Both the position numbers and the translations under genes were made by a program. From Clostridium sp. (GTDB lineage: Bacteria > Bacteroidota > Bacteroidia > Bacteroidales > Muribaculaceae): DNA of 64,000 bases. The stretch lies in contig JAMPBQ010000007.1 in assembly GCA_023666615.1 (NCBI GenBank), positions 1 through 64,000 of the forward strand. The letters run 5' to 3'. This document shows, piece by piece, positions 9,974-26,878 of the stretch (its first letter is position 1; each line of letters starts with the position of its first letter). Below the pieces are notes generated by a model. That model saw only the letters and a list, made by a program, of their open reading frames with translations. It was not told the DNA's origin and did not search any database.

Positions 9974-10045
9974 ACAGCCCATTTCCCGTAAAGCGCAAAG
10001 GCTTTGTGTGGATTCCGTCAAGATGGGAATTTTGCGGGGATTGTA

Positions 10046-13100: not shown

Positions 13101-13686
13101 CGTTCTCGTCCTCGATACCGAAGTTTACTCCAACACCGGCGGCCAGTCATCAAAGGCCACTCCCGTGGGCGCTATCGCTAAGTTCGCCGCTTCAGGCAAG
13201 CGCATCCGCAAGAAGGACCTTGGCCTCATCGCTTCCACCTACGGCTACGTTTACGTTGCCCAAGTGGCTATGGGCGCCGACATGGCCCAAACCCTCAAGG
13301 CCATCCGCGAGGCAGAGGCTTACGACGGCCCGTCGCTCATCATCGCTTACTCTCCCTGCATCAACCACGGCCTGAAGGCCGGCATGGGCCACTCGCAGCA
13401 GGAAGAGAAGCGCGCCGTAGAATGCGGCTACTGGCACCTCTGGCGCTACAACCCCGCTCTCGAGCTCGAAGGCAAGAATCCGTTCAGCCTCGACTCAAAG
13501 GCTCCGGATTGGGACAAGTTCGCCGACTTCCTCAAGGGCGAAGTGCGCTACGCATCTGTCTACAAGCAATTCCCCGCTGAGGCCGACGAGCTCTTCGCTG
13601 CCGCAAAGGCCAACGCCATGTGGCGCTACAACAACTATCGCCGCCTTGCCCAGCAGCAGTGGGGCGTGGATCCCGAGGTAAAGTAA
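10129..13686 (+). CDS. nifJ: pyruvate:ferredoxin (flavodoxin) oxidoreductase
   Basis: The 1185-residue single-chain enzyme converts pyruvate and CoA to acetyl-CoA and CO2, passing electrons to ferredoxin, a central step of anaerobic metabolism in Bacteroidales. All domains are present in order: the N-terminal domain I (YPITPSSTMAEYVDEW), the transketolase-like second domain, the domain with the CIQCNMCAYVCP cluster site from Cys690 and the CLGCGNCVDVCPGK site from Cys747, and the proximal-cluster and TPP domain with CSGCGET from Cys817 and GDGAAYDIGFGGLDHVL near residue 967, followed by NTGGQSSKATPVGA. Codon use is strongly biased to a few C-ending codons, as expected for a highly expressed gene. 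It is flanked by its own promoter and a strong terminator, so it is probably monocistronic. Confidence 0.97.
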   Translation: MSKEKKFLTCDGNQAAAHVSYMFSEVACIYPITPSSTMAEYVDEWSAAGRKNIFGETVTVQEMQSEGGAAGAVHGSLQAGALTSTYTASQGLLLMIPNMYKIAGELLPCVFHVSARTLASHALSIFGDHQDVMSVRQTGFAMLAEGSVQEVMDLAGVAHLSTLKSSVPFVNFFDGFRTSHEIQKIEEISQDDLAALIDKDALANFRNRALNPEKPVARGMAENGDVFFQHREASNKYYEAVPEIVEQYMAEISKITGREYHLFNYYGDPEAERVIIAMGSITQAAQEAIDYLMAKGEKVGLVSVHLYRPFSAKHFLAAVPKTAKRIAVLDRTKEPGANGEPLYLDVKDCFYGQENAPIIVGGRYGLASKDTTPSQIIGVYENLALPMPKNNFTISIVDDVTFTSLPLPTEMALGHASTYEAKFYGLGADGTVGANKNSVKIIGDNTNKYCQAYFAYDSKKSGGFTCSHLRFGDEPIRSTYLVNTPNFVACHVQAYLRMYDVTRGLRDNGTFLLNTIWEGEELAKNLPNKVKRYFAEHNITVYYINATKIAQEIGLGNRTNTILQSAFFRITGVIPVDLAIEQMKKFIVKSYGKKGQDVVDKNYAAVDRGGEYHQLTVDPAWASLADEPEKENNDPAFIKEVVRPINAQDGDLLKVSAFEANPDGTWEQGTAAYEKRGVAAFVPEWDPTNCIQCNMCAYVCPHASIRPFVLDAQEMANAPFGDDYSLPAIGKTMAGMRFIQAVDVLDCLGCGNCVDVCPGKKGNKALAMKPLETELKYQANWDYCSKEVKSKAHLVDKMVNVKNSQFAQPLFEFSGACSGCGETPYVKLVSQLFGDHQMVANATGCSSIYSGSVPSTPYCKDENGRGPAWANSLFEDFAEFGLGMKIATEKMQARLADLFTKAQACDCCSDEIKALAAKWLENRNDYAATREVHDKIVPLCKACDCDICKGIVALEHFIAKRSQWIIAGDGAAYDIGFGGLDHVLASDKNVNVLVLDTEVYSNTGGQSSKATPVGAIAKFAASGKRIRKKDLGLIASTYGYVYVAQVAMGADMAQTLKAIREAEAYDGPSLIIAYSPCINHGLKAGMGHSQQEEKRAVECGYWHLWRYNPALELEGKNPFSLDSKAPDWDKFADFLKGEVRYASVYKQFPAEADELFAAAKANAMWRYNNYRRLAQQQWGVDPEVK

Positions 13687-13710
13687 TCTATACTCATACT
13701 CAATAATCGC

Positions 13711-13746
13711 AAGGGCGCATCGCGGCAATCCGCAATGCGCCCTTTT
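13711..13746 (+). terminator. terminator of nifJ
   Basis: AAGGGCGCAT (13711-13720) pairs perfectly with ATGCGCCCTT (13735-13744) over a 14-base loop, followed by TT. It begins 25 bases after the nifJ stop. Confidence 0.8.
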
Positions 13747-13750
13747 CCCA

Positions 13751-13826
13751 CACAAAAGCTTCTGCTTATACTCTAAAGTTTTTCCTAAAAGCACAAAAAG
13801 TTTCTACTTATACCCTAAACTTTTTC
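13751..13826. repeat. imperfect direct repeat, two copies of about 34 bases
   Basis: Two copies, 13751-13784 and 13792-13826, share CACAAAA, then TTCT-CTTATAC-CTAAA and a TTTTTC run, with several differences. They lie between the convergent nifJ and glpT-like genes. No protein or RNA is recognised here. Confidence 0.5.
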
Positions 13827-13882
13827 AGGTTGTTTTCTTGGGACCGGTGACTAAAAGATAGACACCCAAGCATAAACAAGCG

Positions 13883-15262
13883 TCAATCGTCGTTACGCTT
13901 TGCATTCCACACCAGCAGCGTTAGGACAACCGAAAGCATTGCGGCGCCAATCCAAAACCAATTGACGTAGGTGAAATCATAAGCTTCTATGCCGTTGACG
14001 ACTGTCTTATTGCCCTCTATAAGCACGCCATTCATGACATCCTGAAGACCCGCCCCGATATAGCTGGCTATGCCCACTACGCCCAATGCCGCCCCCGCGG
14101 CGGCACGCGGCGCTATGTCTACGGCCATCAGCCCTCCCAGGAAGCAAATGAGCACGCCTATGCCAAGGCCAAAAAGCACCATGGCCGTTACATCCAGCCA
14201 AAAGTTCTCTCCCGGCACCAACAAGAATAGGCACAGGGCCACTACATTCATAAGTCCGAAAACCAAGGCGGGGACATTGCGCGAACCATTGAACAGCTTA
14301 TCCGATATTAGGCCGGAGGCCACCGTGCCGACTATTCCGCACACTGAGCTGATTGATATGATTAAGCTGGCGTCAAGGGTGTTATAGCCCTTTTGTGCCT
14401 CCAAATAGAACACGCCCCAAGAATTGACAGCGTAGCGGCTTATGTACATAAACGCCGACGCCACCGCAAGAATCCAAATTGCGGGGTTCTTGAGCACGGC
14501 TTTTTGCGCAATGTTGAAATCATTATTCTCTTTTTTTGCGTCACCCGTATCTTTCACCACATTTTGGCTTAGCAAGTAACCTTGGCTTTGAGGGGTATCC
14601 CTCATGAACAAAAGAAGCATGCCAAAGCCAAGCAATCCTATAATGCCGGCTCCTATCATTCCATAACGCCAACCTGCCCAGCTGACCAATAGGGCTATCG
14701 TGATAAAGGTTATGGCCTCTCCAAGATTATGGCTTGCGCTCCAAAAGCCATAGAATGTGCCTCGGTCTTTGGAATCATACCAACGGTTGAGCGATACAAC
14801 CCCGGCAGGGGATCCCATTGACTGAAACCAGCCATTCAGACCCCAAAGCACAGCGAAGACAATGAACATGCCGGTCATGCCAAGCACCAAGTTGACGAGC
14901 GCCGTAAGCAAAAGGCCGGTGGCCATGAATCGCCGCGCGTTGCATCGGTCTGCAAGGAATCCGTTGGCCATTTTGCCCACGGCGTATACAAAAAACAGGC
15001 ACGAGCCTATGATGCCCAATTGGGTCTCGCTGAATACGCCGTCGTCCACTATAGGCTTGCGTATGATGTTCATGCTCAATCGGCATACGTAATATAGAGC
15101 ATAGCCACAAGTGGCGGAAATGAATGTGGCGAGGCGTATTTTATTGAAATCCTCCGGTTTGTTCTTGCTGTTGAAATTAGGACTGGAAATTTTGTAAAAT
15201 TTCGCCAAGCGGGATATGAGGCTTTCCTTTTGCCGCCATGCGCTTGTTAATGTTGATTCCAT
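13883..15262 (-). CDS. OPA-family MFS transporter, GlpT/UhpT-like
   Basis: The 459-residue protein has about 12 membrane segments and the features of the organophosphate:phosphate antiporter family: YALYYVCRLSMNIIRKPI near residue 60 and KMANGFLADRCNARRF in the loop between segments 2 and 3. The family exchanges inorganic phosphate for glycerol-3-phosphate or hexose phosphates at the inner membrane. Downstream of two exported glycerophosphodiesterases and a SusC/SusD pair, glycerol-3-phosphate import is the most likely job. A strong minus-strand terminator (15303-15342) separates it from the GDPD genes, so it may depend on read-through or its own promoter, which I could not see. A role as sensor (UhpC-like) cannot be excluded. 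Confidence 0.9.
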   Translation of the reverse strand: MESTLTSAWRQKESLISRLAKFYKISSPNFNSKNKPEDFNKIRLATFISATCGYALYYVCRLSMNIIRKPIVDDGVFSETQLGIIGSCLFFVYAVGKMANGFLADRCNARRFMATGLLLTALVNLVLGMTGMFIVFAVLWGLNGWFQSMGSPAGVVSLNRWYDSKDRGTFYGFWSASHNLGEAITFITIALLVSWAGWRYGMIGAGIIGLLGFGMLLLFMRDTPQSQGYLLSQNVVKDTGDAKKENNDFNIAQKAVLKNPAIWILAVASAFMYISRYAVNSWGVFYLEAQKGYNTLDASLIISISSVCGIVGTVASGLISDKLFNGSRNVPALVFGLMNVVALCLFLLVPGENFWLDVTAMVLFGLGIGVLICFLGGLMAVDIAPRAAAGAALGVVGIASYIGAGLQDVMNGVLIEGNKTVVNGIEAYDFTYVNWFWIGAAMLSVVLTLLVWNAKRNDD

Positions 15263-15302
15263 CGCTCGTATTTTGGATTTTTAGCAATTTAATTGTTTTA
15301 TG

Positions 15303-15342
15303 AAAAAAAAAGTTCCCTATCAAGGGACAAATAGGGAACTTT
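15303..15342 (-). terminator. rho-independent terminator after the GDPD genes
   Basis: A 12-base perfect stem, AAAGTTCCCTAT (15309-15320) with ATAGGGAACTTT (15331-15342), followed on the minus strand by a run of T's (plus-strand A's at 15303-15310). It would stop leftward transcription 22 bases past the first GDPD stop. Confidence 0.9.
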
Positions 15343-15364
15343 CACCAAAATAATCTACCTTAAT

Positions 15365-16261
15365 TTAATCGTGCATGTTTCGGCTCCGCAAATAATCCAG
15401 CAGGAATTGCGGACGGTCAGTCTGGATTATCCTCGCCCCGAGATTGTCAATCAAATAGCCATATCCGTTGGAAAAATCCTTAAGGGAAGCGTCATCGTCA
15501 TGACCGCCGGCCATTGTGTCCCAAAGAGTGTTGTACCAAATCAGCGAACGCCCTTTTATGCTGTCTTTCAGCTTTATGGGAAGAGGATTAGTGTCAAGCT
15601 TGTAAAGGAGCTCGAAGGCCACGGGCTGCATGTCGGCTATGAACATCTCGATTTGCTCCTCTGCATTGTCCTTGTCAAGGTTGACTATGGGCATATAGAT
15701 CACATCCTTTAGATAGTCGCCATATTTTTCCTTGACCTGCTCGGCGCTGCCGTTGCCCTTCATGATTATTTGCTTGGTGGTGCCTGTCTTCTGCAGAAGG
15801 TCATACACCTGGTCAAAATAGCGGTCGGCCTTGTCAAGATTTATCATGATTTTGCCTTTCGCGTGCAGTAGTGCCTCCTCCAGCGTGGGCACCTTGTGTA
15901 TCGTGCGGATATTGCACCCGTTCTTAAGGTTAAGAGTGCGGATGTAATCCATTGTGGCTTCCGCAATGGGGCCTTTGCCGGTGGTGGTGCGGTCGAGCTT
16001 GGGGTCATGCATCAGGATAAGAACGCTGTCCTTAGTCCTTGTTACGTCCAGCTCCACGATGTCCACTCCCATGGCAATGGCGTTGTCGATTGCCTCAAGT
16101 GAGTTTTCAGGAAAATTTCTCCAGTCTCCGCGATGGGAAGCCACTATCACTGACGAATCATCCCCCTTCAGCAGCTTTTCGCGGATAAGATCTGAGCGAT
16201 TTTGCGCATGCATGCTCGCTGCCGCTAGAAGGAGCAGGCACGAGAATAGTATTCTCTTCAT
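15365..16261 (-). CDS. secreted glycerophosphodiester phosphodiesterase (paralogue 1)
   Basis: From the ATG at 16261 (an upstream ATG at 16270 adds three residues) the protein has 298 residues and a signal peptide ending SMHAQ, so it acts in the periplasm or outside. Motifs of the GDPD TIM barrel: HRGDW with His43, ENS at 52-54, ELD with Glu70 and Asp72, and MHD with His85, then LDRTTTGKG. GDPD enzymes split glycerophosphodiesters into glycerol-3-phosphate and an alcohol; the family also includes GlpQ-type teichoic-acid hydrolases. PENS replaces the more usual PENT. It lies just after a second GDPD gene (35 bases) in the SusC/SusD operon. The two paralogues differ enough to suggest different substrates or chain positions. 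Confidence 0.93.
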   Translation of the reverse strand: MKRILFSCLLLLAAASMHAQNRSDLIREKLLKGDDSSVIVASHRGDWRNFPENSLEAIDNAIAMGVDIVELDVTRTKDSVLILMHDPKLDRTTTGKGPIAEATMDYIRTLNLKNGCNIRTIHKVPTLEEALLHAKGKIMINLDKADRYFDQVYDLLQKTGTTKQIIMKGNGSAEQVKEKYGDYLKDVIYMPIVNLDKDNAEEQIEMFIADMQPVAFELLYKLDTNPLPIKLKDSIKGRSLIWYNTLWDTMAGGHDDDASLKDFSNGYGYLIDNLGARIIQTDRPQFLLDYLRSRNMHD

Positions 16262-16295
16262 TTTATGCATTGTATTAAATTGTTGTCTTATAGGA

Positions 16296-17210
16296 TTAAA
16301 ATTCGCGGCGACCTATTTTGGAAAGATAATCTTTCAGAAGCATAGGGTTGTCGCTGAATATGACATTGGCTCCAAAATCTAGAAGCCAGCCGTATGAGCC
16401 CTCCGGCTCAGTCAGCGCCAGTTCATCATCATGGCCCGCATTGAATGTGCCCCACAGGGAATTCAGCCATAGCCTGCATCCCTTTTGGCTGATTTCCGCG
16501 CTTCTTTGCAGCACGGGAAAATCATCCTTGGTGAACGAAAGCGCAATGCATGGCGATGATGAATTTTGCAGAAAGTCATCAAGCTTTTCATCATCGTTTT
16601 TGCCATTGCACACCAGCACGGGCATGAAAATCACATTGTCAAAAAGATGTCCGTAATGCTTGGCGTTGTAGTCGCTGGCGGTGGTGGCGCGTATGATTAT
16701 CTGCCGCTCACAATCATGCTTTCTGGCCAATTCAATGATTTTTTCCTTGTAAGGCTTCCATTTGTCCACCTGAATCAGGCATTTGCCTTTGGCCAAGAGC
16801 AGCACATCCTCAAATGTGGGTATGGTCTGTCTAGTCTTGACCCTAATGGGGCTTACCAAATTGCACTCCTTCAGCTCATCCCATGTGTAGTCCGAAACCT
16901 TCCCTTTGGCGGTTGTGGTGCGGTCCAGGGTCTCGTCGTGCATTATGATCAGCACCGAGTCCTTGGTCATCTTCAAATCTATTTCGATGCCATCAATGCC
17001 GGCGTCGATGCATCGCTGATATGCCTGAAGAGAATTTTCGGCTGTTGAGCGCCAGTCTCCCCTATGGGCAATAATCATCACGTGATTTGACTGTCCGCCA
17101 TCATTTAGTATGCGCAGCAGAGTGTCAACCCTGCATTGCCGAGGGCTCGCCGACAGTCCGGCGATGCATGAAATAAGCCAGAATATTATCGCAAAAGGGA
17201 ATTTCTTCAT
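16296..17210 (-). CDS. secreted glycerophosphodiester phosphodiesterase (paralogue 2)
   Basis: A 304-residue GDPD with a signal peptide (residues 1 to about 21, ending LSA). Catalytic motifs are kept: HRGDW with His49, EID with Glu76 and Asp78, MHD with His91, and DRTTTAKG. PENT is replaced by AENS. The C-terminal part shares the LW/AGHDD pattern with its neighbour (LWGTFNAGHDDE), so the two arose by duplication, but overall they are diverged. It sits between SusD and paralogue 1 and is preceded by a hairpin at 17227-17262 that could adjust its dose relative to the transport genes. The likely role is to release glycerol-3-phosphate in the periplasm from whatever SusC/D imports. Confidence 0.93.
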   Translation of the reverse strand: MKKFPFAIIFWLISCIAGLSASPRQCRVDTLLRILNDGGQSNHVMIIAHRGDWRSTAENSLQAYQRCIDAGIDGIEIDLKMTKDSVLIIMHDETLDRTTTAKGKVSDYTWDELKECNLVSPIRVKTRQTIPTFEDVLLLAKGKCLIQVDKWKPYKEKIIELARKHDCERQIIIRATTASDYNAKHYGHLFDNVIFMPVLVCNGKNDDEKLDDFLQNSSSPCIALSFTKDDFPVLQRSAEISQKGCRLWLNSLWGTFNAGHDDELALTEPEGSYGWLLDFGANVIFSDNPMLLKDYLSKIGRREF

Positions 17211-17226
17211 GCCTTTAATCTAATTT

Positions 17227-17262
17227 GGATTCAAAGGGAAGGAGAGCCTCCCCTTTGAATCC
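17227..17262 (-). promoter_or_regulatory. intercistronic hairpin between SusD and GDPD genes
   Basis: Perfect 12-base stem GGATTCAAAGGG (17227-17238) with CCCTTTGAATCC (17251-17262). On the minus strand it is not followed by a T-run, so it looks like an RNA-stability or partial-attenuation element rather than a full terminator. Confidence 0.6.
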
Positions 17263-17268
17263 TTGATT

Positions 17269-18993
17269 TTAGAAATTGGTGCTGTCGGTCCAGCCCGGGT
17301 TTTGTGTCAGGGCGCCGCCGGACAGTACACGCTCACTTGCGGGTATTGGCCACAAATAGTCGCGCTCCTCATTCCAGCTGACGGGAATGGTGCTGAGCGC
17401 ATGTATGTTGCCGCTAGTTCCGCCGGTTAGCGTTACGTCCACGCCGATTTTCTTGGCTGTGCCTTTGAAATCTCCCTTGGCGTCAGTGTAGAGGAGAAGG
17501 TCGTTTGCTCCATCGCCGTCCATGTCATATTCTCCCGGGCCATGGAAATAGCATCCAAGGAAAGGCTTGGTCAATTGCTGGCCTTCTTTCCAGCGGATTA
17601 TGTCGTACAGGCGGAATCCCTCCATGCAAAGCTCAATGGTGCGTTCCCTCCTGATTTCAAGGATAATCCCCTTGTTGCTCGTTGAGCAGTTAGGGTAATA
17701 CTCGATCATCAGCGGATCGGGATTGCTGTTGGCGTCCGCAAGATTGAGATCCGGCATTTTTGCCCTCGCCCTAATCTTGTTGACAGACTTGTCGAGATCG
17801 GCTTGCGTAAGCGCGCCAAGCTCAGCCTTTGCCTCGGCAAAGTTGAGATAGACCTCGGCTGTCCTGAATAAAGGAAAGTCCGTATAAGCCTTGTTTGCGC
17901 CATCATAAGTTGATTCGCCCACAAATTTAATGGGCTGGTAGCCGGTGAGGGCATTGAGCGAGTTGGGAGTGACGGCGGAAGCGCCTTTTTGGATATACCC
18001 AGGGCAAAGCACCGTCTGGGCCAACCGCGGATCGCGGCCGGCAACCTCCTCCGCATATTCTTTTGTCTCATATCCCGGTTGGGAGGAATAGTAGGTGCCA
18101 TCGGCCATCAGATAGTGGTTCATAAAGCGCTTGGTGAAGCCCAGACGGTCGTTTGTGATGTTGAACTGCACGCCATGCAGCACATTAGCCGTAGAGCTGT
18201 AGGTGCGCGCCAAGATCACTTCGTCAGTCTTTGCTGATAGGCTGTTGAACAAATCGCGGTATGGCTCGCTCCCTGCAGTGTAAAGCTTATAAGGGCTCTC
18301 TGATATGAATGCTTCGCCTGCGTCAGCCGCGGCCTGAAGATATTTTTCCGCATTTGACAGGCCGTGGTACTTTCTGAATGTGCCTTCAAACAGCGCTATC
18401 CTCGTCTTAAGGGCAAGGGCCGTCCACTTAGTCACATGCACTGCATCCTTGCCGGTAGGCAGCATATCTATGGCGCGGTCCAAATCCTCCATTACATGCT
18501 GCATCACCTCTTCGCGGCTGTCTCTAGGCTTGTAGAGCAATTCCGCGTCGGAGGATCCGAGCACCTGGTCATACCATGGCACATCGCCATATCTCCTTAC
18601 CTTCACGTAGTAGAAATATGCGCGGTGGAAATACGCCACGCCTTCGTATTTTGTGCGAGCGGATTCATCGGAACAGCGGTAAGAATTCTGCAGGAAATAA
18701 TTGATGTTGCGCAGGCGTGTCCATGTCCATCCGCTCTCGTCTGCGGCAGATCTCTGGCCCATCAGCACATCCCCCAGGGAATTGTCAATATTGTCATCGG
18801 CATTCGTGCCCGCCACTGTCTCGGCGTTGTCAAGCTGCGCATAAAAATTGTTGGTCCAAAGTTCAAGCTGGCTCGCATTCTGGAAATACGATTCAGGGGA
18901 AATGGTGTCTTCTGGGATTTTTGTCAGATCGCAGCTGGCTGTGCCGGCTCCCAGCAGAAGCAGGGTCAAAAGCTTTATGTATTTGGTTTTCAT
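17269..18993 (-). CDS. SusD/RagB-family substrate-binding lipoprotein
   Basis: A 574-residue outer-membrane lipoprotein (signal peptide, lipobox TASC with Cys21). Helical TPR-like segments and the family pattern (ENFRxxEVYLNFAEAKAE-type motif, here FRTAEVYLNFAEAKAELG; RRERTIELCMEGFRLYDIIRW near the C-terminus) place it clearly in SusD/RagB. It caps the SusC channel and binds the ligand at the cell surface. It lies 18 bases after SusC in the same operon. Because the downstream enzymes are glycerophosphodiesterases and not glycosidases, the ligand is probably phosphodiester-linked; this is inferred from context. Confidence 0.95.
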   Translation of the reverse strand: MKTKYIKLLTLLLLGAGTASCDLTKIPEDTISPESYFQNASQLELWTNNFYAQLDNAETVAGTNADDNIDNSLGDVLMGQRSAADESGWTWTRLRNINYFLQNSYRCSDESARTKYEGVAYFHRAYFYYVKVRRYGDVPWYDQVLGSSDAELLYKPRDSREEVMQHVMEDLDRAIDMLPTGKDAVHVTKWTALALKTRIALFEGTFRKYHGLSNAEKYLQAAADAGEAFISESPYKLYTAGSEPYRDLFNSLSAKTDEVILARTYSSTANVLHGVQFNITNDRLGFTKRFMNHYLMADGTYYSSQPGYETKEYAEEVAGRDPRLAQTVLCPGYIQKGASAVTPNSLNALTGYQPIKFVGESTYDGANKAYTDFPLFRTAEVYLNFAEAKAELGALTQADLDKSVNKIRARAKMPDLNLADANSNPDPLMIEYYPNCSTSNKGIILEIRRERTIELCMEGFRLYDIIRWKEGQQLTKPFLGCYFHGPGEYDMDGDGANDLLLYTDAKGDFKGTAKKIGVDVTLTGGTSGNIHALSTIPVSWNEERDYLWPIPASERVLSGGALTQNPGWTDSTNF

Positions 18994-19011
18994 GTCTCTT
19001 CTTGTCTTTTA

Positions 19012-22000
19012 TTAAAATTTCACGTCGATGCCAACTGAGAACGATTTGGAATAGCCATAGCCAACGCCTGAGCCCGAATTGTAGGTAGACGATGTATTGG
19101 TCAGCTCCGGATCGACAGTCTTGCAGTATTTCTTCAATGGCGACCAGTAGAACAAGTTTTCGCCCGTAAAATACAGCCTTATGCTTTGGAACACCTTCTT
19201 GCTCTTCAATGGCAGGGTGTAGCCTATTGTCAAGTTCTTTAGGCGCAGGTACGACGCGTCCTGGAGGTAGCGGTCGTTGATCACGCCAAGGGCGCCGCCG
19301 GAATAGGACGCGTAACCGCGCGGGCGCGGGAAATAAGCGTTGGGATTTTCCTCGCTCCAGACGTTATCCATGAAATCGCTGTGTATGAAAGAAAGCGACG
19401 GAAAGGAGTACGGGCCCCAGAAGTCGTAAGCGTATGTGGTGGGATACCAATCCTGCTTGCCTACGCCCTGAAAGAATGCCGAGACGTCGAATCCCGCATA
19501 GTTGGCGTCAACTCTGAACGAATATGAATAGCGGGGAAGTGTGTTGCCAATTACTCTCTTGTCGCCCGGATCGCTCACTGTGCCGGAGCCCTCGGATATC
19601 ACATTGTCGCCATCAAGGTCGATGAACTCTACGTCGCCTGCGCGAAGATATGCCTCCTGCTTGCAGTTGTATACTCGCTGGTTCACAGCCTTGTCATTGA
19701 TTTTTGCCTGATAGGCCGCGGCGTCGGCGTCGGTGGCGAATAGGCCGGCCACCTTGTATCCCCATATTTCTCCAAGGGTCATGCCTTCGTAGTAGCTGGA
19801 AATCAAGCGGTCGGGATTGTTGTACTTCGTAATCTTTGATTTGTAGTCGCCGATAGACGCTGACAATCCGTAGGCGAATTTGCGCCCGGCGAGGTTAAAG
19901 CTGTCGTTCCATCTTACATACAGCTCCCATCCGTTGGTGCGAAGGTCGGCGCAATTTTCCTTTGGCGTGTTAGCGCCGTACACCGATGGCAATGTCAGAG
20001 ATTGCGTGAGCATATTCTTTGTATCGCGGATGAACACGTCGGCCGTGGCGTTGAGCCGGTTGTTGAAGAATCCCAGATCCAGGCCAAAGTTGTAGGTTGT
20101 CACAGTCTCCCACGTCAGGGCCGAAGAGATAGGATCAGAAACTGACGCATAGTTTGCCTTGCTCAATCCATCGAACGTGTAGCTGCTCATTATCTTGTCG
20201 GTATAGATTTGGTCAAAATAGGCGTACGTTGCCACTTGCTGGTTGCCTAGGCTGCCGACTGAAAATCTGAACTTGCCATTGTTCCAAAAGCTGTTGAGAG
20301 GCTCAAAGAAGCCTTCCTGGCTGAATCTCCATCCGATGCTGGCCGATGGGAAGAAGCCCCAGCGGTCCTTTGACGAAAAGCGCGATGTGCCGTCAAATCG
20401 CCCGCTGGCCTCAAAAAGATACTTGCCTTCGTAGTCATAATTGACGCGGGCGAAATAGCCAAGTGTCCTGTATGCGGAGATATCCTCAGTGACGGTGGCT
20501 TCGCCCGTGGCAACGCTGAACGAGCTCAAGTCCTTGCTCAGCAAATCGCTCTTTTTGACTGATGTCTGCGTATTGCGATGGTCTTCATATTGCACGCCGG
20601 CCACAGCGGTGAAGTTGTGCTTGTCCTTCCACGTATGATTGTACGTGGCGTATGCGTTTACGCTATGGCGGTTTATGTTGCTGTGCAGCTCTTGATAGTA
20701 GTCGGTGATTGAGCCCGAAGTGAAAGTCTTCATAGCGCCATTCTTGTCTTCGTAATCAAAAGGCATGCTGCGTCGCTTTACCTGGCGATTGCGGTAGCGG
20801 TAGGCGTATGATGCCGTGATTACGAGGTCGCTTGTGATATCAAAGTCCAGTTGATTGGTGATCACAAAATCCTTATTGCCCCTGGAGTTTCGCGCCTCAT
20901 TCGCCACCAAAAATCCTGCATGCCCTGCGCCCAGAGGGGAGTTGGCGCCGGTCATAGTGTTGACGTATTGCACCACATTGCCTTCCGGTGTGTATGGCAT
21001 TACGGCCGAGTTGATGTTGGACTGCAGGCTGCTTATGGTCATTTGCTCATTATAGTAGCCCGCATATTTGTACTCAGTGGCGTTGAAATTGACATTGCCC
21101 GTATATCTAACGAATGAGTACAGCTGCGCATTCAGCTTTGTCCTAAACGAATAGTTTTTATAATTGTCCTTGTAGATATTGAAAATGCCGTCTTGTGAAA
21201 GGAAGCGACCGCTCACAAAGTAGTTTGTCTTTTTGTTGCCTCCAGTGATTGAAACGTTATGCTCAGTCTCCGGGCGAGTCTTCCTGTACAAAAAATCGTA
21301 CCAGTCATAATTGGCGTAGAACCTGAGCTTGCCCTTGTCGTCGCGAATGGCCCATGGCCTGCTGGGATCTTCGGTTGAGTCGTTTCGGCGTTCATAGAGC
21401 ATATCCATTTCTTCATCGGAATATCCCCACATCTTCTTTCCCTGGTATATCTCATAGAATTGATTGACGATGCTCACATGGTCATAACCGGTGTTTATGA
21501 AATCGGTGGATGTGGTGTTTTGGCGCCAGCCAACGCGGCCGGAATAGCTCACGTTCACTTTCCCGTCTGAATCTTTTCCGCTTTTGGTGGTGATGAGAAT
21601 CACGCCTGACGAGGCCTTCGCTCCATAAATGGCTGATGCCGAAGCATCTTTAAGCACTGAGATGGATTCAATATCGTTAGGGTTGATCTGATTGAGGCTT
21701 ACCTCCATTCCGTCGCACAGAATCAGCGGGCTGCCGCCGTTGATTGACGCCACGCCGCGTATGTCGACTGAATAATCCGAGTCCAGAGAGCCGGTGTTGA
21801 ACGTCAGGTTCACCGAGGGGTCGGCGCCCTGGAGAGCTCCTGCCGCAGAGGCCACCGGGCGATTGTTTACGTCATCAGCCCCTATCGTAGCCACGGCGCC
21901 GGTCAGATTCGCCCTCTTTTGCGTGCCGTAGCCCACGACTACCACTTCGGAAAGCACCTGCGAATCCTCTTTCAGCTCAACCATCGACAGAGCGGCCGTG

Positions 22001-22542
22001 TTGGTCGCCTTTATCTCACGAGGAGTGTATCCCACGTATGAAAAAACGATAGTGGCGTCGGCCGGCACATTGGGCAGGGAATAATTTCCGTCAATGTCGG
22101 TGTTCACGCCTTGCTGGCTGCCCTTTACCATAACCGAGCCGCCGATAATTGGCTCCCCCGATTGGTCAACGACAGTGCCTGAAATCTTTATTTTGTTTCC
22201 GGTCTTTGCGGACTCCTGCAAAGAATTGTCCTTATCCGAGATGATGATTGATTTATCGGATACAATTTGATAAGACAGCCCCGTGCCTTTAAGGGCCTTG
22301 TCCAGGATTTGGGATACGGGAGCGTTGTTCGCCTTTATTGAAACCGCCCCTTTATTCTCCAATGCGTCGTCTCGGTACGAGAACACGTAGCTTGTCTGTT
22401 TTTCAATGGCTTCAAACAAGCTTTTCAGCTTGCCGTTCTCAATGTCTACCGTTGCCTTTTGGCCGCCTGCCGCAAAGGCATTCGCGCCCAAAAGCATGCA
22501 TAGCACGCATAAGAACAGCGTTTTAATGAAATTGCAATTCAT
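19012..22542 (-). CDS. SusC/RagA TonB-dependent transporter with STN domain
   Basis: An 1176-residue outer-membrane transporter. In order: signal peptide (ending ANAFA), an STN (secretin/TonB short N-terminal) domain at about 30-105 (LFEAIEKQTSYVFSYRDD, VSQILDKALKGTGLSYQI), a carboxypeptidase-D-like domain (ISGTVVDQSGEPIIGGSV; TDIDGNYSLPNVP), a plug (VVVVGYGTQKRANLTGAV; SVLKDASASAIYGAKASSG) and the large barrel ending SFSVGIDVKF. STN domains pass a substrate signal to a FecR anti-sigma factor; sigma and FecR genes lie divergently next to it. I found no TAnnTTTG box upstream of this gene, which agrees with control by that ECF sigma factor. Confidence 0.96.
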   Translation of the reverse strand: MNCNFIKTLFLCVLCMLLGANAFAAGGQKATVDIENGKLKSLFEAIEKQTSYVFSYRDDALENKGAVSIKANNAPVSQILDKALKGTGLSYQIVSDKSIIISDKDNSLQESAKTGNKIKISGTVVDQSGEPIIGGSVMVKGSQQGVNTDIDGNYSLPNVPADATIVFSYVGYTPREIKATNTAALSMVELKEDSQVLSEVVVVGYGTQKRANLTGAVATIGADDVNNRPVASAAGALQGADPSVNLTFNTGSLDSDYSVDIRGVASINGGSPLILCDGMEVSLNQINPNDIESISVLKDASASAIYGAKASSGVILITTKSGKDSDGKVNVSYSGRVGWRQNTTSTDFINTGYDHVSIVNQFYEIYQGKKMWGYSDEEMDMLYERRNDSTEDPSRPWAIRDDKGKLRFYANYDWYDFLYRKTRPETEHNVSITGGNKKTNYFVSGRFLSQDGIFNIYKDNYKNYSFRTKLNAQLYSFVRYTGNVNFNATEYKYAGYYNEQMTISSLQSNINSAVMPYTPEGNVVQYVNTMTGANSPLGAGHAGFLVANEARNSRGNKDFVITNQLDFDITSDLVITASYAYRYRNRQVKRRSMPFDYEDKNGAMKTFTSGSITDYYQELHSNINRHSVNAYATYNHTWKDKHNFTAVAGVQYEDHRNTQTSVKKSDLLSKDLSSFSVATGEATVTEDISAYRTLGYFARVNYDYEGKYLFEASGRFDGTSRFSSKDRWGFFPSASIGWRFSQEGFFEPLNSFWNNGKFRFSVGSLGNQQVATYAYFDQIYTDKIMSSYTFDGLSKANYASVSDPISSALTWETVTTYNFGLDLGFFNNRLNATADVFIRDTKNMLTQSLTLPSVYGANTPKENCADLRTNGWELYVRWNDSFNLAGRKFAYGLSASIGDYKSKITKYNNPDRLISSYYEGMTLGEIWGYKVAGLFATDADAAAYQAKINDKAVNQRVYNCKQEAYLRAGDVEFIDLDGDNVISEGSGTVSDPGDKRVIGNTLPRYSYSFRVDANYAGFDVSAFFQGVGKQDWYPTTYAYDFWGPYSFPSLSFIHSDFMDNVWSEENPNAYFPRPRGYASYSGGALGVINDRYLQDASYLRLKNLTIGYTLPLKSKKVFQSIRLYFTGENLFYWSPLKKYCKTVDPELTNTSSTYNSGSGVGYGYSKSFSVGIDVKF

Positions 22543-22674
22543 GTGAATGATATGATTTAAAGTGTCTATAATTAGATAATCGCAAAATGCGTCTGATTTT
22601 CCCGCGAAATTTATATGTTTTAAAACATATAATTTTCATGCTCGGAAATTCCAGGCTTCGATAAATTTTTTTTG

Positions 22675-22682
22675 TACCTTTG
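22675..22682 (+). promoter_or_regulatory. -7 box for the ECF sigma gene
   Basis: TACCTTTG after a T-run. It ends 10 bases before the ATG at 22692, so transcripts would have almost no leader if that ATG is used; the next in-frame ATG is at 22737. Confidence 0.55.
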
Positions 22683-22691
22683 CCGCATTAT

Positions 22692-23270
22692 ATGGTGGAA
22701 GAGACTTTGTCAAGCGAAAACGAAATACAGAACTGGATGATAGAATCCTTGAGGGAAGGTTCCATTGAGGCATTCAACGCCATTTATGGGCTGTATTCGC
22801 GCAGGCTGTTGATTTACATCGCAAAAGCGACAAGAAACAAGGAGGACGCCGAGGAAATAGTCCATGACATCTTTATTGGATTGTGGAATTTGCGCAAAGG
22901 CATAAAGCCGGGGACAAACCTGGCGGCGCTTCTTTTTTCAATCGCCTACAAGCGGAGGGTAGATTACTTCCGAAGGGCTCTGAACGCCCCCATTTATGAG
23001 GACTACATGAATTTTCACAACGAACTCGTGGCAGAAGACAGCGCGAATCTTGAATATGACGATTTTTACAATATGTTTGAGCGGGCTTTGCGCACATTGC
23101 CGCCCCGTTTGCAGTCCTTCATCGTCCTTTCTAGAATAAAAGGGCTTGAGGTTGAAGAGATTGCCCAAAAGCTGAATGTTTCGCCCAAAACCGTCAGCAA
23201 TGGCTTGTCGGAAGGATTGAAGGCCTTGAGAAATCGTTTGGTGGCAATAATGAAGAATAATAAATCTTAG
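22692..23270 (+). CDS. ECF RNA polymerase sigma factor (FecI-like)
   Basis: A 192-residue sigma-70-family factor. Region 2 is recognisable (FNAIYGLYSRRLLIYIAK, DAEEIVHDIFIGLW, AYKRRVDYFRR), as is region 4 with a helix-turn-helix (VEEIAQKLNVSPKTVSNGLS). It lies divergent from the STN-bearing SusC and two bases before a FecR gene, the standard cell-surface signalling arrangement of Bacteroidetes. It would bind core polymerase and switch on the SusC/D-GDPD operon when its anti-sigma partner is signalled. I chose the ATG at 22692 because a TTG further upstream overlaps the -7 box. ATG 22737 is an alternative that would still keep region 2 complete. Confidence 0.9.
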   Translation: MVEETLSSENEIQNWMIESLREGSIEAFNAIYGLYSRRLLIYIAKATRNKEDAEEIVHDIFIGLWNLRKGIKPGTNLAALLFSIAYKRRVDYFRRALNAPIYEDYMNFHNELVAEDSANLEYDDFYNMFERALRTLPPRLQSFIVLSRIKGLEVEEIAQKLNVSPKTVSNGLSEGLKALRNRLVAIMKNNKS

Positions 23271-23272
23271 CA

Positions 23273-24241
23273 ATGGAGGAAAGGTTTAAGCGATATATAG
23301 AGGGAAATATTAATATTGAAGATCTGGAAATCCTGCGGCGGGACGTCGATCATCTCTCTGACAATGAATTAAGCAATTATATTGACGAATGCGGACACGA
23401 TGCCTCCTTCTCGCAGGCCGACGTCAAAAAATTGCAGGCGAAGATAATGGGCGAAATTGGCCATAAGCAAAAGAAAAATGCGGTTAAACGCATTTATGCC
23501 AGCTGCGCAGCCGCCTTAATTCCCATAATCTTGGCGCTTGGCTTTATTATATTCCTAAAGAGCAGAGAGATCTACGAATGTAGGGAGCTCCTTGCCAAGC
23601 AAGTTGAGATATGCACGGGCAGAGGAGAATACATATCCGCAGTCCTTCCGGATGGCTCAAGGGCCAATATCGGCCCTGAGTCTACATTGTCCTATAAAGT
23701 GGGAACGTTCTGCGGCGAGGAGCGCGCCATTGATTTTTCAGGCGAGGGCGATTTCAAAATCGCAAAGGTGCCCAATTCGTCATTTGTCCTATTGTCCAAA
23801 AATCTTAAAATACAAGTGTTGGGCACTGAATTCTCTGTATATTCCAGAAGCGGCAGCCCCAATTCCGAAGTCTACCTTGACAAGGGTTCCATCCAGCTGA
23901 CGGCATTGACCTCAAATATATGCAAATTGATGAAGCCGGGCGAAACGGCCATAATCAATAATCTTACCGGAGGAATTCAAATGTTCGGAGCGGACAGCAA
24001 TGTAAAAAGGACCGCAGGGCAAGATATTATTTATTTTTCCTCAACGCCCTTAAGCCAAGTGGCCGATAAAATTGAATTGTATTATGGGCGCGATGTAATG
24101 GTGGAAGGCGACAAGGGCGGCATTTCATTCACCGGCTCATTGCCTACTAACGATATAAAACAGGCGGCCTATATTTTGGAGAATACCTTGAACATTGAAT
24201 TCGCCGTGGATGAATCCAATGATAGATATGTCATAAGGTAA
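23273..24241 (+). CDS. FecR-family anti-sigma factor
   Basis: A 322-residue inner-membrane protein. An N-terminal cytoplasmic part (1-65) would hold the sigma factor; one membrane segment spans about 70-95 (YASCAAALIPIILALGFIIF); the periplasmic FecR domain follows (ISAVLPDGSRANIGPESTLSY; VLGTEFSVYS). The C-terminal DUF4974 part (STPLSQVADKIELYYGRDV) resembles an STN fold and would meet the STN domain of SusC. It follows the sigma gene with a two-base gap, so the two are coupled. It ends nine bases from the convergent helicase gene. Confidence 0.92.
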   Translation: MEERFKRYIEGNINIEDLEILRRDVDHLSDNELSNYIDECGHDASFSQADVKKLQAKIMGEIGHKQKKNAVKRIYASCAAALIPIILALGFIIFLKSREIYECRELLAKQVEICTGRGEYISAVLPDGSRANIGPESTLSYKVGTFCGEERAIDFSGEGDFKIAKVPNSSFVLLSKNLKIQVLGTEFSVYSRSGSPNSEVYLDKGSIQLTALTSNICKLMKPGETAIINNLTGGIQMFGADSNVKRTAGQDIIYFSSTPLSQVADKIELYYGRDVMVEGDKGGISFTGSLPTNDIKQAAYILENTLNIEFAVDESNDRYVIR

Positions 24242-24249
24242 AGAGGGGC

Positions 24250-25584
24250 TTAGAAGAGGGAGGCTTTGGCGCGCTGGCCTTTGATTTTTGCGGCGGAGGC
24301 TATGCTGATTACTTCTTGGGCCTTGTCGGAGGGGATGGCGGCCACCACGCAATGGTCCTTCACCACTATCTTGCCCACCTGGTCGCCGCGCAGGCCGCAC
24401 TGCTTGGTGAGGAATCCCAGCACATCTCCCTTTGACACTTTTTCCTTCTTGCCTACATTGAGGTAGAGCGTAGACACATCGCTGCGTATCGGGTCTCCGT
24501 TGGGCATATGCTCAGCCGGAACGTATTCATCATCAAAATCGATATAGTCGGGGATTTTTTCTCCCTCGGAGGCCAGAACGTAAACATCGCCCGTGGCGTC
24601 GACGCGCGCGGTGCGCCCGTTGCGGTGCGTCCAATTCTCTTGCGTTGGCGGCAAGTGGTAATGCACCACGCTGCGTACGCCCTCTATGTCCAGTCCGCGC
24701 GATCCAAGGTCAGTGGAGGCAAGGATGGGCGTAGTGCCGTTGTTGAGCATGTCGATGGCCACCTCGCGCTGCAGCTGGTCGAGGCCGCCGTGGTATAGCC
24801 CAACGGGCATTTTCTTGCGGTTGAGGAAGTCATAGACGCGCTCGGCGCTCTCGCGATGGTTCACGAATACTATGGTTTTGCCGTTGGGCAGGGATTCCAG
24901 CAGCTGATGCAGCGCCTGAAGCTTGTCGCGGCTGTCGCTGCGCACCAGATGCACGTCCATTCGCTCCCTTGGTGAGGAGTTTTTGTCGGCGTAATCTATC
25001 ACCTTTGCTTGCGAAAGGTCGATAAAGTCGGGCATTTCATATAGGCGCGTGGCGGAGGTAAGCATCACATATTTCAGCGATTTCATCCTCTTCACTATCC
25101 TGCGCATCTGGTCATGAAAGCCGAGCTCCAATGCCTTGTCGTACTCATCAAGCACGAGCGAACGCACGGGCGCCAAATCAATCGTGCCCCTCAGCGCGTG
25201 GTCAAGAAGCCTGCCGGGGGTGGCGACGACTATGTCGGGAACAGGCTGCAGGCTATTGATTTCCTCCTGCATTGAGTGGCCGCCATAGAGCGCCACTGTC
25301 TTATGGGCGCCGTTGCCCTCTCCGTTAGCCACGGGCCGCACTATATTGGCAATCTGTATGACAAGCTCGCGCGAAGGCGCCACAATCACCGCCTGGACTT
25401 TGCCGTCGGAGGGCTGCAGCCTCTCCACGAGCGGAATCGTGAAGGCCAGCGTCTTTCCGCTGCCCGTGGGCGCCAAAAGTATCACCCTTTCTGACTTGGC
25501 GGAAACGGCCTTTTTCTGCATTGGGTTTAGTTCTTCTACGCCGTGGCGCTCGCCTATTCGCTTGAGTATGTCTTTGAGAGTCAT
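24250..25584 (-). CDS. DEAD-box RNA helicase with DbpA-type C-terminal domain
   Basis: A 444-residue superfamily-2 RNA helicase. It has the Q motif (LNPMQKKAV), Walker A APTGSGKT, motif Ia/Ib (TPGRLLDHAL), motif II as DEYD (LVLDEYDKALELGF) instead of DEAD, motif III SAT, and motif VI HRNGRTAR. The last 75 residues (YLNVGKKEKVSKGDVLGFL) match the DbpA RNA-binding domain that targets 23S rRNA hairpin 92, so a role in large-subunit ribosome assembly is likely. The gene stands alone, 80 bases from the thioredoxin-like genes on the same strand. Confidence 0.93.
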   Translation of the reverse strand: MTLKDILKRIGERHGVEELNPMQKKAVSAKSERVILLAPTGSGKTLAFTIPLVERLQPSDGKVQAVIVAPSRELVIQIANIVRPVANGEGNGAHKTVALYGGHSMQEEINSLQPVPDIVVATPGRLLDHALRGTIDLAPVRSLVLDEYDKALELGFHDQMRRIVKRMKSLKYVMLTSATRLYEMPDFIDLSQAKVIDYADKNSSPRERMDVHLVRSDSRDKLQALHQLLESLPNGKTIVFVNHRESAERVYDFLNRKKMPVGLYHGGLDQLQREVAIDMLNNGTTPILASTDLGSRGLDIEGVRSVVHYHLPPTQENWTHRNGRTARVDATGDVYVLASEGEKIPDYIDFDDEYVPAEHMPNGDPIRSDVSTLYLNVGKKEKVSKGDVLGFLTKQCGLRGDQVGKIVVKDHCVVAAIPSDKAQEVISIASAAKIKGQRAKASLF

Positions 25585-25665: not shown

Positions 25666-26190
25666 CTACTTAAGCATGTCTGCCACCATCCGCTCCAGCT
25701 CAGCGGACATCGCGGCCTCCACCTCCTGCTGCGAGGCGTTCTCGTTGGTGAGGGTGGTAAGGAAGTCATTGAGGCCGACGTGGGTCTGCACTGTGCCGTC
25801 TGGCATCATAAACACGATGGTGGGTATGGCACGGATGCTGAACGCCGTGGCAGTCTGCGGATACTGGTCGGTGTCGATGGAATAGAAATCCACCTTTGAG
25901 CTGTATTTTTCCGCGGCCTTGTCAAAAGCCGGGGTGAAAAGACGGCACGGCCCGCACCATGTGGCGTTGAAATCAATCACGGTGGGCCTGAGCACCTTCA
26001 TGCCGGGGCGTATCTGCGCATCGCTCTTGGGCTTCAGTATGCTTGAATCTTCGGCCTTTCCGGCCTGGCTCTTTGTGTCTTGAGTTTCAACCGAGGCCTC
26101 CGCATCTGCCTTTGCGGAGGTGTTGCCTGCGCCGCAAGCCATCATCACGCTTGCGAAAGCCAGGCACATTATCGCGCGTATCTTTTTCAT
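25666..26190 (-). CDS. thioredoxin-like lipoprotein 1
   Basis: A 174-residue thioredoxin-fold protein with a lipobox (MMAC, Cys19), so it is anchored to a membrane in the envelope. A 45-residue Lys/Glu/Ser-rich linker leads to the thioredoxin domain with the CGPC active site (Cys79, Cys82) in FNATWCGPC and a cis-Pro motif (IRAIPTIVFMMPDG). It probably acts in periplasmic disulfide exchange. It is 12 bases from a related gene on the same strand; the two form a tandem pair with diverged linkers. No partner gene (such as a DsbD or TlpA substrate) is next to them. Confidence 0.9.
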   Translation of the reverse strand: MKKIRAIMCLAFASVMMACGAGNTSAKADAEASVETQDTKSQAGKAEDSSILKPKSDAQIRPGMKVLRPTVIDFNATWCGPCRLFTPAFDKAAEKYSSKVDFYSIDTDQYPQTATAFSIRAIPTIVFMMPDGTVQTHVGLNDFLTTLTNENASQQEVEAAMSAELERMVADMLK

Positions 26191-26202
26191 AATCTTTCCG
26201 TT

Positions 26203-26718
26203 TTATAGGTTTTCATCAATTATCACGACGAGATTGTCGAATATTATTTTCTCCGCCTGATCCTTGTCGGAATTTTTGAGTTCATCAGATGATATGAAGG
26301 GGGAAAGTGTTTCGTACTTTTTCACCGACCCGTCAGGCAAGATCAAGGCCACAACCGGCACATTCTTGTTTATGCCAAACGCCTCGTCAGTGGCCGTCAG
26401 CTCATCCACGTTGGCGCTGTAGAATTTCACCCTTCCGCCATACATTGCCGCGGCCTTCTTCATTGGCTCGTCAAGCTTTTTGCACGGCCCGCACCATGGG
26501 GCGTTGAAATCAACCACGGTGAGAATATCCGCTTTCATGCCCGGGCGCAAAAGGGCGTCGTCGGCGAGGATCGCCACTGTATCCGCCACGGCCTCTGCGG
26601 CTTCGGCGCTTGCCGGCGCGGCGTCCTCGGCGGCTGCCGCATTCTTCGTTCCACAAGATGCGACCGACATAGCGGAAATCAATGCGGCCATCAAGATGGC
26701 TTTTGTCGTAAATCTCAT
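26203..26718 (-). CDS. thioredoxin-like lipoprotein 2
   Basis: A 171-residue protein, with the start set at 26718 to give a normal signal peptide and lipobox (VASC, Cys22; an in-frame ATG at 26730 adds four residues). An Ala-rich linker precedes the thioredoxin domain with CGPC (Cys76, Cys79) in FNAPWCGPC. The cis-Pro region is KNVPVVALILPDG. It is followed closely by thioredoxin-like lipoprotein 1, so both are probably one operon. The active site is intact, and the Ala-to-Thr difference before the tryptophan may change redox potential; that is inference. Confidence 0.88.
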   Translation of the reverse strand: MRFTTKAILMAALISAMSVASCGTKNAAAAEDAAPASAEAAEAVADTVAILADDALLRPGMKADILTVVDFNAPWCGPCKKLDEPMKKAAAMYGGRVKFYSANVDELTATDEAFGINKNVPVVALILPDGSVKKYETLSPFISSDELKNSDKDQAEKIIFDNLVVIIDENL

Positions 26719-26878
26719 TATCAAATTCATTTAAAACGTGTTGAACCGACGCTCCGCCCTGCGCGGGGCGTTCTCAAACACAGATGTAGAACGCGCGGCC
26801 GCGGAGCTTTGTTTTGCAAAAATACAAAAACTATGTGAAACACAAAGGCAAAACGATGAATTATTCGGCAAAAAGTGC

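What the first reader, a model, noticed from the sequence alone, without database searches (positions are those of the whole stretch)
13883..24241. SusC/D locus built around two glycerophosphodiesterases and a GlpT-like carrier under ECF/FecR control
SusC/D loci usually carry glycoside hydrolases. Here the only enzymes are two exported GDPD phosphodiesterases with intact catalytic residues (His43, Glu70, Asp72, His85; His49, Glu76, Asp78, His91), followed by an OPA-family transporter and controlled by a divergent sigma/anti-sigma pair matched to an STN domain on SusC. The parts predict surface capture of a phosphodiester-linked ligand, periplasmic release of glycerol-3-phosphate and its import. 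Candidate ligands are deacylated phospholipid head groups or glycerophosphate polymers such as teichoic acids of neighbouring Gram-positive bacteria, since some GDPD enzymes (GlpQ type) are teichoic-acid hydrolases. The ligand is inferred.
Basis: partly seen in the sequence, partly recalled or inferred. Interest (0 to 1): 0.75.

Follow-up and report, generated by a model that had tools for sequence, protein, structure and literature searches.

The report
Gut locus for importing phosphodiester nutrients
This stretch of a gut bacterium's genome encodes what looks like a full set of parts for catching a phosphate-linked molecule at the cell surface, cutting it and importing the phosphate-bearing piece; versions of it recur in related bacteria with the outer parts exchanged, but the molecule it catches is still unknown.

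Summary
Window 13883-24241 encodes SusC (with STN domain), SusD, two GDPD phosphodiesterases with export signals, an organophosphate (OPA-type) carrier and a divergent ECF-sigma/FecR pair. The order is not unique: the same SusC/D subtype with both GDPDs recurs in 5 other fetched loci (Bacteroides, Muribaculaceae), and a GDPD-carrier core with different SusC/D recurs more widely. In 397 sampled family genomes, 23 of 27 carrier places lie within 0.7 kb of such a GDPD. In the window's own genome a second locus keeps the core (70-77% identity) with a SusC only 29% identical.

Two parts of the interpretation weaken. The GDPDs are a separate clade (GDPD + DUF4996), not GlpQ-type, so the teichoic-acid analogy has no sequence support. 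The carrier keeps the GlpT phosphate site but has replaced several residues shared by GlpT, UhpT and UhpC, so glycerol-3-phosphate is likely, not shown.

Best reading: ligand-induced capture of a soluble phosphodiester, periplasmic hydrolysis, import of the phosphomonoester. The closest published kind is the flavobacterial PusCD loci. Verdict: a new variant of a known kind, of moderate interest.

The parts
13883..15262 (-). OPA-type MFS carrier (organophosphate carrier; phosphate site intact, other pocket residues altered)
   Evidence: residues
15308..15343 (-). terminator-like hairpin followed by a T run, between GDPDb and the carrier gene; possible attenuator
   Evidence: consensus scan and fold only; the scan found 18 such sites in the region against 11.9, sd 3.7, in shuffles
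15365..16270 (-). GDPDb: GDPD + DUF4996 with a signal peptide by eye, catalytic H46/E73/D75/H88; the conserved core enzyme
16296..17210 (-). GDPDa: GDPD + DUF4996 with a signal peptide by eye, catalytic H49/E76/D78/H91; separate clade found with this SusC/D subtype
17269..18993 (-). SusD-like lipoprotein (lipobox-like TASC near the N terminus, by eye)
   Evidence: N terminus read
19012..22542 (-). SusC/RagA TonB-dependent transporter with N-terminal STN signalling domain
22543..22679 (.). divergent intergenic region; TACCTTTG at 22675-22682 on + just before the preferred sigma start fits the Bacteroides -7 consensus TAnnTTTG (recalled); no SusC promoter identified
   Evidence: sequence; consensus recalled
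22692..23270 (+). ECF sigma factor (listed from TTG 22680; ATG 22692 preferred)
23273..24241 (+). FecR-type anti-sigma factor with one apparent transmembrane stretch (by eye)

Best explanation
A substrate-induced phosphodiester utilisation locus. SusD/SusC bind a soluble phosphodiester at the surface and move it, TonB-driven, into the periplasm. Two exported GDPDs hydrolyse it to a phosphomonoester plus an alcohol, and the OPA-type carrier brings the phosphomonoester into the cytoplasm (by phosphate exchange if it works like GlpT/UhpT). Ligand on SusC releases the ECF sigma factor through STN and FecR and switches the locus on. The most likely ligands are deacylated phospholipid head groups such as glycerophospho-choline, -ethanolamine, -inositol or -glycerol, with glycerol-3-phosphate as the product. 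GDPDb plus carrier form a constant core; SusC/D and the proteins encoded between them are exchanged between loci, which suggests that different outer parts feed one common inner step. Shown here: gene content, catalytic residues, synteny, modular exchange. Inferred: order of events, cell location, ligand, product, induction.
For: Domains and catalytic residues complete. H46, E73 and H88 in 131 of 131 aligned GDPDs, D75 in 130 of 131. Carrier next to GDPD: 23 of 27 carrier places in 397 sampled family genomes lie within 0.7 kb of a GDPD of this clade (recount); 60 of 127 fetched GDPD loci hold a carrier, 59 within 5 kb of the GDPD (many loci are cut by contig ends), and at 34 of 51 GDPD-carrier junctions the genes overlap or are under 15 nt apart. 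The carrier clade keeps GlpT R45, R269, H165, K80, Y38, Y42, Y76, Y266 in 57-58 of 58 sequences. The window arrangement including divergent sigma/FecR is kept in a Bacteroides MAG (L071), where a histidine acid phosphatase gene follows GDPDb instead of a carrier, as expected if a phosphomonoester is the product. Several accessory proteins of related loci match phosphoester or ester hydrolase families: EEP, CbiR-like, NAGPA, metallophosphatase, GDSL, HAD; of the six enzyme families I tracked, all matches but one sulfatase lie within 5 kb of the GDPD. E. coli glpTQ, an adjacent GDPD and carrier pair, is the established precedent for the inner half (physiology recalled).
Against: No ligand, activity or expression data. 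The carrier has lost residues common to GlpT, UhpT and UhpC, so the product may not be glycerol-3-phosphate. A GlpA/GlpD-type domain (DAO_C) was not found in the 94.6% complete genome (the control Bacteroides ihuae does not ring either); a GpsA-type gene is present. PlsY was not found, nor in Bacteroides ihuae. In 4 of 27 places the carrier stands without such a GDPD; at one of them (G305) only a weak GDPD match of 26 bits lies 2.7 kb away. Of 53 GDPD operons with SusC/D, 13 lack a carrier in the operon, L071 among them. Some related loci carry glycoside hydrolases (GH3 L131, GH20 L084, GH31 L160, GH92 L033). In print, GDPD genes also stand in or beside Flavobacterium loci with glycoside hydrolases (PMC9131120 and PMC12758843, passages). 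The hairpin upstream of the carrier gene may uncouple it from the operon.
Confidence: 0.6

Rival explanations
1. The ligand is a phosphodiester other than a glycerophosphodiester (sugar phosphodiester, phosphodiester-linked glycan fragment or cyclic sugar phosphate), and the carrier imports a different phosphomonoester such as a sugar phosphate.
For: 11 positions identical in GlpT, UhpT and UhpC are switched in the carrier clade while the phosphate site is kept. NAGPA phosphodiester glycosidase matches 2 of 67 accessory proteins scanned, and GH3 or GH20 stand beside the GDPD in L131 and L084. A TonB transporter plus phosphodiesterase feeding on a sugar phosphodiester exists in Xanthomonas (XanT/XanP, PMC12807533, abstract and passages seen).
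Against: GDPD is mostly a glycerophosphodiester family (recalled); XanP is a 2H phosphoesterase, not a GDPD; GHs are known here in only a few loci. The switched carrier positions were compared with three E. coli proteins only; PgtP, the best-scoring model, was not among them.
Confidence: 0.25
2. The ligand is a glycerophosphate polymer (teichoic-acid fragments of Gram-positive neighbours), shortened in the periplasm by the two GDPDs.
For: SusC/D systems often take up oligomers (recalled). L131 and L084 pair the GDPD with a GDSL esterase and GH3/GH20, which could strip D-alanyl and amino-sugar decorations. GDPD domains occur in phage tail fibres.
Against: The enzymes are not GlpQ-type. The window locus has no esterase or GH, and no enzyme with a clear surface-lipoprotein signal to release fragments from cell walls (by eye).
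Confidence: 0.1
3. A phosphate-scavenging locus induced by phosphate starvation rather than by its ligand, as the flavobacterial PusCD loci are; the carbon part is incidental.
For: PUSI of Flavobacterium johnsoniae has PusCD, an ECF sigma factor and two predicted periplasmic phosphodiesterases, and PUSII a FecR-like regulator; the two SusCD-like complexes were induced on phosphate depletion only (PMC8115612, passages and table rows seen). Histidine phosphatase instead of a carrier in L071.
Against: STN-FecR-sigma signalling normally reports ligand (recalled). The gut lumen is not usually phosphate-poor (recalled). The carrier would save the organic phosphate rather than strip it.
Confidence: 0.3
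4. The carrier gene is a separate transcription unit and its neighbourhood to SusC/D-GDPD is incidental.
For: 102-nt gap with a terminator-like hairpin; carrier genes without a GDPD beside them in G397 and, on a 4.3-kb contig, G435.
Against: 23 of 27 carrier places adjoin a GDPD; at 34 of 51 junctions the two genes overlap or are under 15 nt apart.
Confidence: 0.05

Closest known systems
PusCD phosphate utilisation systems (PUSI/PUSII) of Flavobacterium (PMC8115612)
   Same: SusCD-like pair with predicted periplasmic phosphodiesterases or phosphatase and an ECF sigma or FecR regulator; the authors propose lipid head groups and nucleic acids as targets of PUSI and mention inner-membrane organophosphate transporters; PhoA1 of PUSII carries PF13653, which I recall as a short GDPD-type domain
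   Different: PUSI enzymes are PF00149/PF16670 families and PUSII has a PhoA; PF03009 does not occur in the main text; regulation there is by phosphate depletion
E. coli glpTQ (GlpQ plus GlpT antiporter)
   Same: adjacent GDPD and OPA carrier genes: cleave outside, import glycerol-3-phosphate (physiology recalled)
   Different: no SusC/D or sigma/FecR beside them; GDPDs and carrier belong to different clades (carrier 29% identical to GlpT, 32% to UhpC)
SusC/D polysaccharide utilisation loci with ECF/FecR control
   Same: SusC with STN, SusD, sigma/anti-sigma pair
   Different: no CAZyme in the window locus
GDPD genes in or beside Flavobacterium IR1 polysaccharide loci (PMC9131120, PMC12758843, passages only)
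   Same: a GDPD gene with SusC/D-type genes
   Different: together with glycoside hydrolases; no organophosphate carrier mentioned in the passages seen
XanT-XanP xanthosan uptake of Xanthomonas (PMC12807533)
   Same: TonB-dependent transporter plus phosphodiesterase for a phosphodiester nutrient
   Different: no SusD mentioned in the passages seen; hydrolase is a 2H phosphoesterase, substrate a sugar phosphodiester
PDB 3i10, putative GDPD (sequence match only)
   Same: nearly whole-length relative of both enzymes (190 and 308 bits)
   Different: its function is not stated in the output; its gene neighbourhood was not seen

Membership tests
GDPD family (PF03009) | GDPD motif with catalytic His pair and metal-binding Glu/Asp | tested here: met
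   third metal ligand Glu replaced by Asp in 130 of 131
GlpQ-type enzymes (incl. Bacillus teichoicase GlpQ) | closest similarity to GlpQ along the whole chain | tested here: not met
   GlpQ model and chains match weakly and over an N-terminal stretch only; second half is DUF4996 (which chains are GlpQ is recalled)
OPA (organophosphate:phosphate antiporter) family | phosphate-site Arg pair, His and Lys | tested here: met
   R45, R269, H165, K80 equivalents in 57-58 of 58
GlpT orthologue | NCBIfam equivalog cut-off and GlpT pocket residues | tested here: not met
   213 bits against cut-off 632.55; K46, N162, E299, Y362, F391 replaced (their role in the pocket is recalled)
SusC/D nutrient-uptake locus | adjacent SusC and SusD homologues | tested here: met
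PusCD phosphate utilisation system | SusC/D with phosphodiesterase or phosphatase, no CAZyme | tested here: met
PusCD phosphate utilisation system | induction on phosphate depletion | not testable with these tools
   no expression data
ECF/FecR trans-envelope signalling | ECF sigma, FecR with transmembrane stretch, STN on the partner SusC | tested here: met
   (membrane stretch by eye); pairing with this SusC is supported by synteny in L071, L184, L185, not by experiment

The most novel reading that the evidence does not exclude
A so far undescribed, modular class of Bacteroidota nutrient locus in which one inner core (DUF4996-GDPD plus its own subfamily of organophosphate carrier) serves many interchangeable SusC/D capture systems, and whose carrier imports a phosphomonoester that GlpT and UhpT do not, so that the ligand is a phosphodiester not yet recognised as a gut nutrient.
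Probability: 0.3. Interest if true: 0.72.

Novelty: new variant of a known kind. Interest (0 to 1): 0.5.

Why it matters
[quoted passage not shown] This locus gives one class of such loci a concrete, testable chemistry: phosphodiester in, phosphomonoester to the cytoplasm. If the ligand is a phospholipid head group, gut Bacteroidales would have a dedicated route for glycerophosphodiesters, which would bear on choline, ethanolamine and inositol release in the gut (inference). The carrier subfamily with altered pocket residues is a separate lead.

Tried and rejected
Rejected: gene order unique to this genome; GDPDa and GDPDb as a recent tandem duplication (their common ancestor spans 119 of 134 leaves; GDPDa forms its own clade of 6 with support 1.0; the tandem pairs in L115 and L149 are close instead); GDPDa as a lipoprotein (the LISC stretch of the window is not kept as a lipobox in the five relatives; by eye); L148 as a further GDPDa locus (its match is a 501-aa protein at 60 bits); opposite-strand ORFs as genes; an Rfam element (none at gathering threshold in 13000-25000). 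A promoter scan found no more sites than shuffles (13 against 14.1).

Led nowhere: PDB profile search for the accessory family with the HxHxDH motif (two matches at E 0.4); PlsY search (not found in the control Bacteroides ihuae either); papers on DUF4996 (none). I found no paper describing a SusC/D-GDPD-carrier locus in the held library with the ten searches; many subscription papers and all bioRxiv preprints are missing from it. PMC8115612, PMC12807533, PMC6499787, PMC8812569, PMC9131120, PMC4666044 and PMC12758843 were seen as passages; the other papers only as search listings.

Limits of counts: the loci were fetched because they hold a GDPD of this kind, so they are no random sample; the 127 loci include contigs cut near the GDPD. 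Seven loci were dropped as duplicates of others (L028, L029, L032, L155-L158); L092, L094 and L095, and L074 and L075, share identical GDPD ends and were still counted apart (checked). 'Operon' means same strand with gaps under 250 nt. Of 80 accessory ORFs, 69 remained after collapsing and 67 were scanned (two L153 ORFs left out), and only 25 of 61 families were shown, so glycoside hydrolases may be under-counted. The named-genome scan kept the best 80 of 230 places (79 loci) and used one peptide pattern. Neighbourhoods of the places were fetched as 40 stretches, not for all. The carrier's switched positions were counted against three E. coli proteins only.
Full report
Observation. The locus is real and complete. 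The host is probably a Muribaculaceae genome: G025, placed in the same family as the window's genome, has two contigs of the same lengths as contigs of Heminiphilus faecis in the named collection. Both GDPDs keep the catalytic His/Glu/Asp/His residues. Both also have a second half that Pfam calls DUF4996, and the third metal ligand, Glu171 in E. coli GlpQ and Glu114 in UgpQ by this alignment (role recalled), is Asp in 130 of 131 relatives. The nearest solved structure for both is 3i10, a putative GDPD (190 and 308 bits, nearly whole length); the chains I recall as E. coli and Bacillus GlpQ match at 33-52 bits over an N-terminal stretch. I therefore do not use GlpQ teichoic-acid hydrolases as the model.

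Recurrence. DUF4996 was found in 13 of 295 sampled order genomes, relatives of GDPDb at E <= 1e-20 in 43 of 397 sampled family genomes, the carrier at E <= 1e-80 in 19 of 397 family genomes and 3 of 395 class genomes, and GDPDa at E <= 1e-70 in 3 of 397 family genomes; the own genome is included in each. A named scan returned 79 loci, in Bacteroides, Alistipes, Dysgonomonas, Sphingobacterium, marine flavobacteria and others. Among 132 GDPD operons in the fetched loci, 53 hold SusC or SusD, 58 a carrier and 40 both. The window's enzyme pair with its own SusC/D subtype occurs in five other fetched loci: L071 (Bacteroides MAG, SusC 81% identical), L078 (B. cellulosilyticus, 69%), L079 (B. timonensis, 70%), L184 and L185 (Muribaculaceae, 69%). 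In L071, L184 and L185 the divergent sigma/FecR pair is kept; in L078 and L079 sigma and FecR lie upstream on the same strand and are only 26-30% identical. L184/L185 have an EEP-family gene between SusD and GDPDa; L078/L079 have a sulfatase gene between GDPDb and the carrier, with a Ser-type SxPxR motif in L078 (motif meaning recalled); L071 has a histidine phosphatase gene after GDPDb and no carrier in the 20.9 kb held.

Modularity. The inner parts are more conserved than the outer ones in many of the loci compared. The window's genome has a second locus (L024) whose GDPD and carrier are 70% and 77% identical to the window's, while SusC is 29% and SusD 24% over 63% of its length; upstream of it lie a FecR gene and, further off on the other strand, a weak sigma-like fragment (20 bits) and a GDSL esterase gene. 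In L115 the carrier is 83% identical and SusC 32%. The reverse also occurs: in L184/L185 SusC is 69% and GDPDb only 37-39% identical, with the carrier at 81-82%. In the family sample 23 of 27 carrier places lie within 0.7 kb of a GDPD of this clade. The four exceptions are a carrier on a 4.3-kb contig (G435), a lone carrier gene (G397), a 46% identical relative with a weak GDPD match 2.7 kb away (G305) and a fragment beside decayed sigma/FecR/SusC pieces (G383). So I read GDPD plus carrier as a core that different capture systems feed.

Accessory proteins. Of 67 accessory proteins scanned from SusC/D-GDPD operons, 21 match a beta-propeller family, 17 fn3 and 13 PKD_4 (possible surface binding proteins, an inference), 5 Exo_endo_phos, 4 DUF218, 3 AP_endonuc_2, 2 NAGPA, 2 GDSL, 2 HAD and 1 GH20 among the 25 of 61 families shown. 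One AP_endonuc_2 member scores 53 bits for the cobamide phosphodiesterase CbiR, below its cut-off of 105. A family of about 350-residue proteins, without a Pfam match in the three members tested or an NCBIfam match in the one tested, occurs in 19 of 127 loci, each time within 5 kb of the GDPD; 17 of 19 (the other two are short pieces) have the HxHxDH motif typical of metallo-beta-lactamase folds (motif recalled), and 12 of 19 a lipobox-like stretch. GH3, GH20, GH31 and GH92 appear in single loci. The recurrent enzymes point to phosphoester and ester chemistry, with some loci that also cut sugars.

Carrier. It is closest among solved structures to GlpT (1pw4, 161 bits) but to the PgtP and UhpC models before GlpT in NCBIfam (250, 239, 213 bits, all below cut-off), and 32% identical to UhpC against 29% for GlpT and UhpT. 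Across 58 carriers of the clade the phosphate-site residues are kept, while K46, N162, E299, Y/F362 and F391 are replaced. Of the positions identical in the three E. coli proteins, 47 are kept and 11 are switched with at least 80% agreement. PgtP itself was not compared. That the replaced residues line the GlpT pocket is recalled. The safe claim is import of an organic phosphate; glycerol-3-phosphate is the likeliest one because of the GDPD.

Metabolism. A GpsA-type gene is present in the genome. No GlpA/GlpD-type C-terminal domain was found, and the control Bacteroides ihuae does not ring either. Of three FGGY kinases found, the one inspected (L219) looks by eye like a xylulokinase. Glycerol-3-phosphate could still enter metabolism through GpsA.

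Known systems. The nearest published kind is the PusCD loci of Flavobacterium: SusC/D-like pairs with predicted periplasmic phosphodiesterases or phosphatase and ECF or FecR regulators, induced by phosphate depletion; for PUSI the authors propose lipid head groups and nucleic acids (PMC8115612, passages and table rows). [quoted passage not shown] GDPD genes in or beside Flavobacterium polysaccharide loci have been shown in passing (PMC9131120, PMC12758843, passages). In Xanthomonas a TonB transporter and a phosphodiesterase feed on a sugar phosphodiester (PMC12807533, passages). E. coli glpTQ is the classical inner half. Hence: new variant of a known kind, with the GDPD-carrier core and its modular coupling as the part for which I found no description in the library searched.

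Verdict.

Noticed in passing
window 15308-15343 (-): 14-pair hairpin followed by a run of T between GDPDb and the carrier gene; hairpins stand at the same junction in L130, L134, L139, L144 and L153, with T runs of four or more in L130, L139 and L144 by eye. Possible attenuation of the carrier.
   Followed up: partly
window 6001-10000: Low G+C stretch (0.37-0.40 against 0.49-0.58 in most of the window) with a C10-family (Spi-inhibitor) peptidase gene 7872-9359 and an outer-membrane barrel gene 9356-9973.
   Followed up: partly
L092:8976-9998 and 18 other loci: Protein family of about 350 aa with HxHxDH motif and no Pfam/NCBIfam match in the members tested, each time within 5 kb of a DUF4996 GDPD: a candidate new phosphoesterase.
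   Followed up: partly
L090:7995-8963 and 5 other loci: Relatives of a CbiR-like TIM-barrel enzyme (AP_endonuc_2) within 1.1 kb of the same GDPDs.
   Followed up: partly
L225:6047-9724 (G383): Decayed copy: pieces of sigma, FecR, SusC and a 242-aa carrier fragment.
   Followed up: no
window 25666-26730 (-): Two adjacent thioredoxin-like genes, with lipoprotein-like N termini by eye, next to a DbpA-type DEAD-box helicase gene.
   Followed up: no
PHROG 16641: Both GDPDs match part of a phage tail-fibre family.
   Followed up: no
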